A stretch of 41,048 nt of DNA from IMG/VR virus record IMGVR_UViG_3300020420_000032, positions 1 through 41,048 of that record. One strand, written 5' to 3'. The notes beneath the pieces were generated by a model. It ran no database searches. It saw only the letters and a program-made list of their open reading frames with translations, and had not been told where the DNA came from. This stretch comes from a virus. Both the position numbers and the translations under genes were made by a program. Numbering within the stretch: the first letter of the stretch is position 1; every line of letters starts with the position of its first letter. This document shows positions 3,277 to 38,485 of the stretch, in pieces.

Positions 3277-4633
3277 GAATTACTGTAGAAAAGTTCTCCC
3301 TTTTATAAAATCGGAATACTTTTCTAATCGAAGTGAAAGAGTAGTATTTGAAGAAATCAATAAGTTTCTTGAAAAATATAATTCACTACCTACAAAAGAA
3401 ACACTCACAATTGGAATTGATAATCGTAAAGATATTAATGATGATGAGTATAAAAAGATTGTTGAGGTCATCACTTCACTTGATAAAACTGAAGTAGACT
3501 TACAATGGTTACATGACGAAACAGAAAAGTTCTGTAAAGACAAAGCGATATATAATGCAGTTCTTGATGGTATCAAGATTATTGATGGTAAAGATAAAGA
3601 TAGAACACCAGAAGCAATACCATCTATATTATCAGAAGCATTAGGTGTTGCGTTTGATTTATCTGTAGGTCATGACTATGTTGAAGATGGTTTAGAAAGA
3701 TATGAATTCTATCATAAGAAAGAAGAAAAGATACAATTCGATTTAGATTATTTCAATAAGATTACGAAAGGTGGATTACCACAAAAAACTTTGAACATTG
3801 CACTTGCTGGTACTGGAGTAGGTAAATCACTATTCATGTGTCATATGGCTGCATCGACTCTCATGCAAGGTAAGAATGTTCTATATATTACATTAGAGAT
3901 GGCAGAGGAACGTATTGCAGAACGAATAGATGCTAATCTAATGAACGTAACTATAGATGATTTACATACACTCCCTAAAAAGATGTTTGAGAATTATCTA
4001 ACTAAAATACAAAAGAAGACAAATGGTAAATTAATTGTCAAAGAATACCCAACTGCATCTGCTCATGTTGGAAACTTTAGAAGTCTAATTAAGGAACTCG
4101 CACTCAAGAGGAGTTTCAAACCAGATATTATATTCATTGATTATTTGAATATTTGTGCGTCATCTAGATTCAAGGGGAACGCAAATGTCGGTTCGTACTT
4201 TTATATTAAAGCGATTGCAGAAGAACTTAGGGGTCTTGCCGTTGAAACTAATGTTCCAATTATGTCAGCGACACAAACTACTAGAAGTGGATTTGTCTCA
4301 AGCGACATTGGGTTGGAAGATACGTCAGAAAGTTTTGGTCTACCAGCTACGGCTGACCTTATGTTTGCTCTCATATCTACCGAAGAATTAGAAGACTTAA
4401 ATCAGATATGTGTTAAACAATTGAAGAATCGTTATAATGACCCAACTATAAATAAAAGATTTATATTAGGTATTGACAGAGCAAAGATGAGATTATATGA
4501 TGTGGAACAACACGCACAAAGAGATATAGTAGATTCTGGACAAGAAAAAGATGAAGTGGTTTTCGACAATACGCCATTTGCTGGAAAGACTAGCAAATAT
4601 GAGAAATTCTCAGACATCAAGGTTTCCTCGTAG
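3224..4633 (+). CDS. gp41: gp41-like replicative DNA helicase (DnaB family)
   Basis: This hexameric 5'-3' helicase unwinds DNA at the fork and works with gp61 primase and gp59 loader, both encoded downstream. From ATG 3224 it has 469 residues. The N-terminal part (HLIHNENYCRKVLPFIKSEY) resembles the start of T4 gp41. Walker A AGTGVGKS is at 195-202, Walker B is in IFIDYLN, and the DnaB-type SATQTTRSG motif follows. ATG 3224 is preferred because GGAAG lies 8 bases upstream; an in-frame ATG at 3209 would add five residues. The C-terminus overlaps the next small gene by 35 bases. Confidence 0.93.
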   Translation: MLTQTIERTTLSHLIHNENYCRKVLPFIKSEYFSNRSERVVFEEINKFLEKYNSLPTKETLTIGIDNRKDINDDEYKKIVEVITSLDKTEVDLQWLHDETEKFCKDKAIYNAVLDGIKIIDGKDKDRTPEAIPSILSEALGVAFDLSVGHDYVEDGLERYEFYHKKEEKIQFDLDYFNKITKGGLPQKTLNIALAGTGVGKSLFMCHMAASTLMQGKNVLYITLEMAEERIAERIDANLMNVTIDDLHTLPKKMFENYLTKIQKKTNGKLIVKEYPTASAHVGNFRSLIKELALKRSFKPDIIFIDYLNICASSRFKGNANVGSYFYIKAIAEELRGLAVETNVPIMSATQTTRSGFVSSDIGLEDTSESFGLPATADLMFALISTEELEDLNQICVKQLKNRYNDPTINKRFILGIDRAKMRLYDVEQHAQRDIVDSGQEKDEVVFDNTPFAGKTSKYEKFSDIKVSS

Positions 4634-37197: not shown

Positions 37198-37617
37198 ATG
37201 TACGAATATAAATGTAAAATGGTCAGAGTAGTCGATGGAGATACAGTTGATGTAGATATTGACTTAGGGTTTGGTGTTTGGTTACGAAAACAACGTATCC
37301 GAATGTATGGTATTGATACACCAGAATCACGAACATCTGACGATGAGGAAAAGATTTATGGAAAGGCTGCATCTGCATTTTTGACTAAGTGGACAAACGC
37401 TGGTGACCTAACACTCAAGACATTCAAAGATGGTAAAGGTAAGTATGGTAGAATACTTGGTGAACTCTGGTATGGTGGAACTCATAACATTAATCAACTA
37501 TTAGTAGATAATCACCATGCAGTTCGTTATCATGGTCAATCTAAAGAAGATATTGCAGAAGAACATCTTGCAAATCGTGAAAAAGTAGAATTGTTAGACT
37601 TGACAACAGAGGAATAA
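37198..37617 (+). CDS. Staphylococcal nuclease-like (SNase) protein
   Basis: This 139-residue OB-fold nuclease has VVDGDTVDVD, RIRMYGIDTPES (R35, D40, E43) and KYGRILGEL (R85). These give the Arg-Glu-Arg catalytic set and calcium ligands known from staphylococcal nuclease. It has no signal peptide, so it probably acts in the cytoplasm on host or phage nucleic acid, unless exported in another way. The -35 of the tmRNA promoter lies in its final codons. Confidence 0.88.
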   Translation: MYEYKCKMVRVVDGDTVDVDIDLGFGVWLRKQRIRMYGIDTPESRTSDDEEKIYGKAASAFLTKWTNAGDLTLKTFKDGKGKYGRILGELWYGGTHNINQLLVDNHHAVRYHGQSKEDIAEEHLANREKVELLDLTTEE

Positions 37618-37628
37618 TCTGGTATAAA
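37600..37628 (+). promoter_or_regulatory. Strong promoter of the tmRNA gene (TTGACA-N17-TATAAA)
   Basis: TTGACA (37600-37605) matches consensus and TATAAA (37623-37628) lies 17 bases on. The same -10 reads TATAAATA, the late T4 motif, so both sigma70 and late polymerase could use it. Either predicts a start near 37635-37636, the first base of the P2 strand of the tmRNA. Confidence 0.65.
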
Positions 37629-37634
37629 TAGAAC

Positions 37635-38106
37635 ATAGTTTGTTGATACAAATCGAATGACGGGCAGGACGAGGGTGCGATACCCTCCACCTCCACCATA
37701 ACTAAACCTCGATTGAGGGGGTGAAATAGGTTCGACTGACGTAGATAGAGGAGAGTAGAACTATCGGATGACTCCGTTAATGGTCATTAAACTAAATGCA
37801 AATGATGATTTTGCGCCTGTTGATTACGCACTAGCTGCCTAATCGTACTGAGTTTTGGTGGTGTACTTGGAAACAGAAACATCACCACGAATTTTAAGGT
37901 TTTCGGTGACGGCCGAAATCGCATCGTGCAAGGAATAAGTATCTCACCAAGAGATATGAACTTGACTAGTTAGAGGTGGTACTCAGGCATGGTTGCAGAA
38001 ATGCGTTGTGTCACATCAATCTACCGATTGGAGCTAGGTTCTGGAAGTAACAAGAATGGTATCTTGGTCTTTCGGTTGTAGGTGAACCCACAGTCCTACC
38101 GATGCA
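37635..38106 (+). ncRNA. ssrA: Circularly permuted tmRNA (SsrA), alphaproteobacterial type
   Basis: The acceptor part comes first: P2 strand ATAGTTT (37635-37641), T-arm GAGGG/CCCTC (37671-37687), then CACCTCC-A-CCA ending at 37698. After an 18-base intervening segment, GGGGGTG (37717-37723) pairs with CACCTCC to form a 7-bp acceptor stem with G3-U, the alanine identity pair. GGTTCGAC follows. GAACTAT (37758-37764) pairs with the P2 strand, and PK1 (CGG/CCG; ATGAC/GTCAT, 37765-37787) precedes the resume codon GCA 37798. The tag is ANDDFAPVDYALAA, stop TAA 37840-37842. Hairpins at 37856-37887 and 37901-37918 and a branched domain 37921-38106 follow; the exact 3' end is uncertain. Confidence 0.85.
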
Positions 38107-38128
38107 CTATTATAATTAAGGAGAAGGT

Positions 38129-38485
38129 ATGCAAGAATTTATTTACGATAGTTGGAATGGTGTCATGAACGCTGACAAAAATCCACTAAGACATATTCCA
38201 GATAACATGACAAGACACATGATACTTCAAATTCTTGCATGGACATGGTGTACGTCATTTTCATTATGGATAGGAAGTATCACATTTTTTGGATTTACTG
38301 CAATTGCACATACGTTTATACTTGCAGCTATTGTTATTACAGTTATGACATTTAATACTGCAAAACGTAACCCAACATTTTTTATTAAAAAAGGATATCA
38401 CACACCTAGTCGTAGTAGAAGTTTATGGTATAATGGAAAGAAAATTGAAACTGACCCTAAAGACGTAGGTGGAGAACATGACTGA
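38129..38485 (+). CDS. Two-helix membrane protein
   Basis: This 118-residue protein has two adjacent hydrophobic segments (about residues 34-55 and 58-76: LAWTWCTSFSLWIG; IAHTFILAAIVITVMTF), a soluble N-terminus and a basic C-terminus. The SD AAGGAG precedes it, 22 bases after the structured RNA. A small membrane protein of this topology is common in phages; function is unknown. It overlaps the next gene by 8 bases. Confidence 0.65.
   Translation: MQEFIYDSWNGVMNADKNPLRHIPDNMTRHMILQILAWTWCTSFSLWIGSITFFGFTAIAHTFILAAIVITVMTFNTAKRNPTFFIKKGYHTPSRSRSLWYNGKKIETDPKDVGGEHD

What the first reader, a model, noticed from the sequence alone, without database searches (positions are those of the whole stretch)
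37635..37842. Circularly permuted tmRNA gene in a T4-like phage
The acceptor half with T-arm and CCA precedes the 5' half. The two halves rebuild a perfect 7-bp acceptor stem with G3-U, a P2 helix, PK1 and a 14-codon tag ending in ALAA. Permuted tmRNA is known from alphaproteobacteria and some other lineages. I do not know of a description in this type of phage. It would let the phage tag stalled proteins for host ClpXP, or replace host tmRNA. The tag is longer than the 10-codon E. coli one.
Basis: partly seen in the sequence, partly recalled or inferred. Interest (0 to 1): 0.92.

Follow-up and report, generated by a model that had tools for sequence, protein, structure and literature searches.

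The report
Split tmRNA gene in marine phage
This marine T4-like phage carries its own two-piece, ribosome-rescuing tmRNA gene; such genes were already described in two related cultured phages, so the gene itself is a new member of a known kind, although its setting (a dual-type promoter, a riboswitch-like RNA right behind it, and relatives that hold protein genes between the two halves) is not described in the papers I could read.

Summary
Rfam tmRNA_permuted (109 bits), alpha_tmRNA (101 bits) and ARAGORN all call a circularly permuted tmRNA at about 37636-37888 (+), tag ANDDFAPVDYALAA. In viral relatives the T-stem, P2 helices and 3'-terminal helix covary strongly, acceptor pair 6 switches U-A to C-G in step, and G3-U70 is invariant. 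PK1 support is weaker and lineage-specific.

It is not new to this type of phage. Melnitz (OM43 host, Buchholz 2022) and Mosig (SAR11 host) carry annotated permuted ssrA genes in a similar neighbourhood. Melnitz's tag is ANDNYVPVDYALAA and its UvsX is 84% identical to the window's. Tags of 13-14 codons are normal in this family.

Most likely function: the phage supplies extra tmRNA, working with host SmpB, AlaRS and ClpXP, to free ribosomes stalled on broken mRNA during infection. No phage SmpB was found.

New details: a TTGACA-N17-TATAAATA promoter at a near-fixed distance (sigma70-like and T4-late-like at once); a manA RNA directly downstream, where Melnitz has a glutamine riboswitch; and, in relatives but not here, an intervening sequence carrying small protein genes under purifying selection or a conserved unknown RNA.

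The parts
37600..37630 (+). Predicted promoter: -35 TTGACA 37600-37605, 17-nt spacer, TATAAATA 37623-37630 (fits sigma70 -10 and the T4 late motif); predicted start near 37636
   Evidence: Only TATAAATA in the window with such a -35; TATAAATA 69-82 nt before the CCA end in 66 of 119 viral clusters, 0.44 expected from shuffles, 0 of 29 bacterial clusters. Function inferred from consensus.
37636..37698 (+). Acceptor piece of the tmRNA: 5' strand of P2, T-arm, acceptor 3' strand CACCUCC, encoded ACCA
   Evidence: RF04321 and RF01849 hits; covariation
37699..37716 (+). Intervening sequence, 18 nt, absent from mature tmRNA by analogy with the family
   Evidence: Read from sequence; 3-499 nt in viral relatives
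37717..37888 (+). Coding piece: acceptor 5' strand GGGGGUG, P2 3' strand, PK1, tag, 3'-terminal helix GGUGGUG/CAUCACC
   Evidence: Rfam and ARAGORN; covariation of P2 and the terminal helix
37798..37842 (+). Tag reading frame ANDDFAPVDYALAA and stop TAA
   Evidence: ARAGORN; no identical tag among 35 distinct sampled bacterial tags, pattern for ANDD/NFAPVDY/FALAA absent from 385 alphaproteobacterial genomes
37901..38109 (+). manA RNA (RF01745), riboswitch-like leader directly behind the tmRNA
   Evidence: 69.1 bits against cut-off 55.2; same tandem in relatives
38129..38485 (+). 118-aa predicted membrane protein, likely controlled by the manA RNA; found downstream of the tmRNA in many relatives and inside the intervening sequence in L247
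   Evidence: tblastn over fetched loci; only a sub-threshold Pfam match, DUF1360

Best explanation
The locus encodes a functional two-piece (circularly permuted) transfer-messenger RNA of the alphaproteobacterial type, in a Melnitz-like T4-type marine phage. Shown by sequence: gene order acceptor piece, 18-nt spacer, coding piece; intact acceptor stem with G3-U70, T-arm, P2 and tag frame. Inferred: transcription starts near 37636 from a promoter that looks both sigma70 and T4-late; host processing removes the spacer; the two RNAs stay paired through the acceptor stem and P2; host AlaRS charges the acceptor; host SmpB brings it to ribosomes stalled on broken mRNAs; the nascent chain receives Ala plus ANDDFAPVDYALAA and goes to ClpXP. 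The phage gains recycled ribosomes while mRNA is being destroyed during takeover. The manA RNA behind it most likely controls the downstream membrane-protein operon, not the tmRNA.
For: Rfam and ARAGORN calls. Covariation in 48 de-duplicated viral sequences: T-stem 240/240 cells paired with 70 double-change cells against 16.8 in shuffles; P2 parts 95, 88 and 85% paired; terminal helix 78% paired with 96 double-change cells against 32.3. 55 of 75 distinct viral tags end in ALAA, the kind of end ClpXP recognises (established knowledge). No SmpB in 28 phage records, including four of 141-148 kb, while the control found it in 10 of 14 bacterial genomes. Close relatives in cultured phages.
Against: No expression, processing, charging or phenotype data exist here. 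PK1 is weakly conserved across the family and seems absent from some members. The host and its own tmRNA and SmpB are unknown. Benefit to the phage is inferred.
Confidence: 0.8

Rival explanations
1. The phage uses its tmRNA mainly as a degradation tool: it tags host proteins, or proteins from destroyed host mRNA, to recycle amino acids early in infection (proposed by Buchholz et al. for Melnitz).
For: Tag ends in ALAA; a sigma70-type promoter is present; the idea is in PMC9004378.
Against: Trans-translation tags whatever is stalled and nothing in the sequence gives it a target preference. The TATAAATA element is equally compatible with late expression.
Confidence: 0.1
2. It is an inhibitor or decoy that titrates host SmpB or AlaRS, as proposed for the tag-less tmRNA of mycobacteriophage DS6A.
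For: A tag-less relative exists here too (L008 against L016); a TLD-only RNA inhibits tmRNA in E. coli (PMC11915505 and PMC4131195).
Against: The window's tag frame is intact, and intact degradation-type tags prevail among relatives.
Confidence: 0.05
3. It is a recently captured host gene or relic without a function in the phage.
For: Phages can pick up ssrA fragments on excision (raised in PMC9004378). One viral locus, L082, groups with bacterial sequences and may be a recent capture.
Against: Compensatory changes across many viral lineages, a conserved promoter position, no tag shared with the sampled hosts, and a tree in which the 21 bacterial sequences plus L082 form one group (support 0.998) apart from the other 47 viral sequences (short alignment, midpoint root, pattern-biased sampling).
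Confidence: 0.03

Closest known systems
Two-piece tmRNA of Methylophilales phage Melnitz (Buchholz et al. 2022, PMC9004378; MZ577095)
   Same: Permuted alpha-type tmRNA, 14-codon tag differing at three positions (ANDNYVPVDYALAA), same kind of neighbourhood, TTGACA-TATAAATA promoter, UvsX 84% identical
   Different: Acceptor pair 6 is C-G instead of U-A; a glutamine riboswitch instead of a manA RNA behind it; a 142-nt intervening sequence with an ORF instead of 18 nt
SsrA of Pelagibacter phage Mosig (MT647606)
   Same: Permuted tmRNA upstream of gp33 and gp59 in a T4-like phage; the genome also has a manA RNA
   Different: Tag GEDNFALAA; the manA RNA lies about 3.2 kb downstream, before a rubrerythrin gene, and not next to the tmRNA
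Alphaproteobacterial permuted tmRNA (RF01849), e.g. SAR11
   Same: Gene order, acceptor piece, P2, G3-U70, coding piece
   Different: Sampled SAR11 tags have 9 codons (ANESYALAA, ANESYAIAA, ANDDLALAA); bacterial genes show a hairpin where the phage gene has its promoter and start
manA RNA motif (RF01745; Weinberg et al. 2010, PMC2864571)
   Same: Above cut-off; known as a 5' leader from T4-like cyanophages and marine metagenomes
   Different: Here it directly follows a tmRNA; that paper's main text does not mention tmRNA

Membership tests
Permuted (two-piece) tmRNA, RF04321/RF01849 | Covariance-model score above the curated cut-off | tested here: met
   109.2 against 47 bits and 100.7 against 50 bits
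Permuted (two-piece) tmRNA, RF04321/RF01849 | Acceptor half with T-arm and CCA before the 5' half; 7-bp acceptor stem with G3-U70 | tested here: met
   Read from sequence; pair 6 covaries and G3-U70 is invariant over 226 loci
Permuted (two-piece) tmRNA, RF04321/RF01849 | P2 helix joining the two pieces | tested here: met
   95, 88 and 85% of cells paired in its three parts, with double changes above shuffles
Permuted (two-piece) tmRNA, RF04321/RF01849 | PK1 before the tag | tested here: inconclusive
   Can be drawn in the window (37765-37786); family support only moderately above shuffles
Permuted (two-piece) tmRNA, RF04321/RF01849 | Tag reading frame with hydrophobic -LAA type end and stop codon | tested here: met
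   ANDDFAPVDYALAA*
Permuted (two-piece) tmRNA, RF04321/RF01849 | Processing into two RNAs, charging with alanine, SmpB-dependent tagging | not testable with these tools
   Needs RNA and protein experiments
manA RNA (RF01745) | Match above gathering score, placed as a 5' leader of a gene | tested here: met
   69.1 against 55.2 bits, ends about 20 nt before the ORF at 38129
Glutamine riboswitch (RF01739), as behind Melnitz ssrA | Match above gathering score | tested here: not met
   No match in the window; present in Melnitz

The most novel reading that the evidence does not exclude
In this marine phage group the split tmRNA gene is a modular RNA operon. One promoter that looks both early and late fixes the 5' end of the acceptor piece; a swappable regulatory-RNA slot follows (manA RNA or glutamine riboswitch); and the intervening sequence between the two RNA halves is a cargo slot, which in relatives holds small protein genes under purifying selection or a conserved RNA of unknown type, so that tmRNA processing would release an mRNA. 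The window is the minimal, cargo-free form with the manA slot filled.
Probability: 0.6. Interest if true: 0.65.

Novelty: new member of a known kind. Interest (0 to 1): 0.42.

Why it matters
It adds a clear case to a little-studied idea: lytic marine phages bring their own ribosome-rescue RNA yet appear to rely on host SmpB. The near-fixed promoter allows a test of when the RNA is made. The 226 related loci give enough variation for structural work. Protein genes nested between the two halves of a tmRNA gene, if confirmed at RNA level, would be a new gene arrangement and would make the processing of split tmRNA testable in a cultured phage, since Melnitz also has an ORF there.

Tried and rejected
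A chance or pseudogene reading was rejected on Rfam scores and covariation. Recent capture from a sampled host: no tag shared between 75 viral and 35 bacterial tags and none in 385 alphaproteobacterial genomes; the tree is short and pattern-biased but sets phage and bacterial sequences apart. A phage-borne SmpB: none found. A terminator between tmRNA and the downstream ORF: none found. The same scan did not list the proposed tmRNA promoter because it requires T at the sixth position of the -10, and the promoter-like sites it did list were no more than chance; the promoter claim rests on its conserved position. Acceptor covariation could not be seen in the first alignment because the search pattern fixed that half, so a second scan with GGGGGCG was run. 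Rfam gave no name to the conserved RNA in some intervening sequences. PHROGs named only one of ten cargo ORFs, an HNH-type endonuclease match in L105; two others had weak matches to unknown families. A weak second tmRNA-like hit at 599-761 (21 bits, below cut-off) was taken as chance.

Full report
What is there. The window is a 41,048-base IMG/VR virus record. Between a nuclease gene ending at 37617 and an ORF starting at 38129 lies a non-coding island of about 510 bases. Rfam finds three models in it above their cut-offs: tmRNA_permuted 37636-37842 (109.2 bits), alpha_tmRNA 37596-37889 (100.7 bits) and manA RNA 37901-38109 (69.1 bits). ARAGORN independently calls a permuted tmRNA with tag ANDDFAPVDYALAA. 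Read base by base, the acceptor piece (T-arm GAGGG/CCCUC, then CACCUCC-ACCA) comes first, then 18 nt, then GGGGGUGAAAUAGGUUCGAC. The rebuilt acceptor stem has 7 of 7 pairs with G3-U70.

Is it more than chance? One viral scan fixed both ends of the intervening sequence; two fixed only the 5' half. With Melnitz, Mosig and the window they gave 226 viral loci in 119 clusters. In 48 de-duplicated sequences from the first two scans, with the intervening sequence removed, the T-stem pairs in 240/240 cells with 70 double-change cells (16.8 in shuffles). The P2 parts pair in 95, 88 and 85% of cells with 29, 40 and 79 double-change cells (10.0, 11.1 and 26.6 in shuffles). The 3'-terminal helix pairs in 78% with 96 (32.3 in shuffles). 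PK1 is modest: 64% and 71% against 46% and 61%. The shuffles do not remove relatedness. Acceptor pair 6 is U-A in 113, C-G in 110, U-G in 2 and C-A in 1.

Which phage. UvsX is 84% identical to that of phage Melnitz (host OM43) and 76% to that of Pelagibacter phage HTVC008M. Next to the tmRNA are an SNase-like nuclease upstream and, downstream, a 118-aa membrane protein, a 2OG-Fe(II) oxygenase, the late-transcription coactivator gp33 and the helicase loader gp59. Mosig has SsrA followed by gp33, thyX and gp59; Melnitz has SsrA downstream of a PhoH gene, as here. The host of the window's phage is not known.

Already known? Buchholz et al. 2022 (PMC9004378) describe the two-piece tmRNA of Melnitz, report permuted tmRNA in 17 of 47 related contigs and count 53 two-piece tmRNAs among phage genomes. 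The finding is therefore a new member of a described kind. Melnitz's tag, ANDNYVPVDYALAA, differs from the window's at three positions.

Promoter. TTGACA-N17-TATAAATA precedes the acceptor piece at 37600-37630 and is the only TATAAATA with such a -35 in the window. TATAAATA lies 69-82 nt before the CCA end in 66 of 119 viral clusters (0.44 expected from shuffled flanks), 54 of them with a sigma70-type -35, and in none of 29 bacterial clusters. The sequence fits a sigma70 promoter (Buchholz et al. call Melnitz's an early promoter) and the T4 late motif alike. The predicted start, 37635-37636, coincides with the beginning of the distal P2 helix. In bacterial genes a hairpin occupies this place. 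That the phage RNA gets its 5' end by initiation and not by processing is inference.

The manA RNA. It starts about 12 nt after the tmRNA and ends about 20 nt before the ORF at 38129, with no terminator found between. The same tandem is seen in relatives. Of 50 records searched, 14 had a manA match, 11 above the cut-off; 10 of the 11 belong to loci where a manA-like motif lies within 620 nt of the tmRNA, and the eleventh is Mosig's, 3.2 kb away. In L092 and L291 a tRNA-Gly stands between tmRNA and manA RNA. Melnitz has a glutamine riboswitch in that position. Homologues of ORF 38129 lie downstream of the tmRNA in 51 tblastn placements, about 190 nt from the 5' half in many loci and 412 nt here. 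The simplest reading is that riboswitch-like leaders are inserted between tmRNA and this gene and control the gene. Because they lie behind the tmRNA, 'tmRNA controlled by a riboswitch' is not the natural reading; that is an inference from position.

Intervening-sequence cargo in relatives. The window's spacer is 18 nt. In viral relatives it runs from 3 to 499 nt. Many long ones hold an ORF longer than shuffles give: L247 120 aa (a homologue of the window's downstream ORF), L042 117 aa, L085/L118/L248, L037/L079, L048/L233/L307; a 38-59 aa membrane-peptide family recurs in 11 loci. dN/dS is 0.02 for L085-L118, 0.11 for L037-L079 and 0.06-0.23 for the pairs computed in the membrane-peptide family. 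Several ORFs end on the TAG of GAAATAG inside the tmRNA (...MMGAK*). Evidence for the Melnitz ORF itself is weaker: it is longer than in shuffles, but its dN/dS against L338 and L341 is 0.55 and 1.24. Other spacers carry a conserved RNA element that Rfam does not name (L035, L092, L094, L112, L115, L033, L050). The tmRNA database paper reports a tRNA-Ala gene and a repetitive element in such spacers, not protein genes (PMC11915505). I found no description of protein genes there in the library searched, which is not the whole literature.

Mechanism. Most likely the phage adds rescue capacity: broken mRNAs stall ribosomes during infection; phage tmRNA charged by host AlaRS, with host SmpB, frees them and tags the product for ClpXP. 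Shown: the RNA's anatomy, its conservation, and no SmpB gene in the records searched. Not shown: expression, processing, charging, benefit. The rivals (protein-degradation tool, SmpB decoy, relic) are weighed in their own section; the first cannot be excluded from sequence.

Limits. The samples were found by sequence pattern, so they over-represent genes with this 5' half and, for bacteria, genes with short spacers; bacterial and viral spacer lengths can therefore not be compared. The tree is short and midpoint-rooted. Many contigs are fragments. Promoter and start-site statements rest on consensus and position.

Noticed in passing
   Followed up: yes
L247, L042, L085, L118, L248, L037, L079, L048, L233, L307, L263, L276, L308 and others: between CCA and GGGGG of the tmRNA: Small protein genes lie inside the intervening sequence of split phage tmRNA genes; several families show dN/dS well below 1, and some ORFs stop at the TAG of GAAATAG within the tmRNA.
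   Followed up: partly
L035, L092, L094, L112, L115, L033, L050: intervening sequence: A conserved RNA element of about 100 nt (CAGTAC...GCCTT...GGTAAGACATTTTAGGATTT...) with no Rfam match, once followed by a small ORF.
   Followed up: partly
L003 (Melnitz) about 3860-4010: Even the cultured phage Melnitz has an ORF in its tmRNA intervening sequence, running into the coding piece; its coding status is uncertain.
   Followed up: partly
L008 compared with L016: A relative whose tmRNA coding piece has lost PK1 and most of the tag region, leaving GCATTAGCAGCTTAG.
   Followed up: no
L092 1384-1457; L291 3358-3431: A tRNA-Gly (acc) sits between the tmRNA and the manA RNA.
   Followed up: no
L105, intervening sequence: An HNH-type endonuclease match (PHROG 5046, E 1.1e-10) inside a 457-nt tmRNA intervening sequence, suggesting a homing element.
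   Followed up: no
L082: A viral tmRNA that groups with bacterial ones, without the TATAAATA promoter and with a sub-threshold suhB/mmgR-like RNA just upstream: possibly a recent host capture.
   Followed up: no
window 28269 and 28535: Two similar strong sigma70-like promoters (TTGACA...TTATTATAAT) 266 bases apart, possibly early promoters.
   Followed up: no
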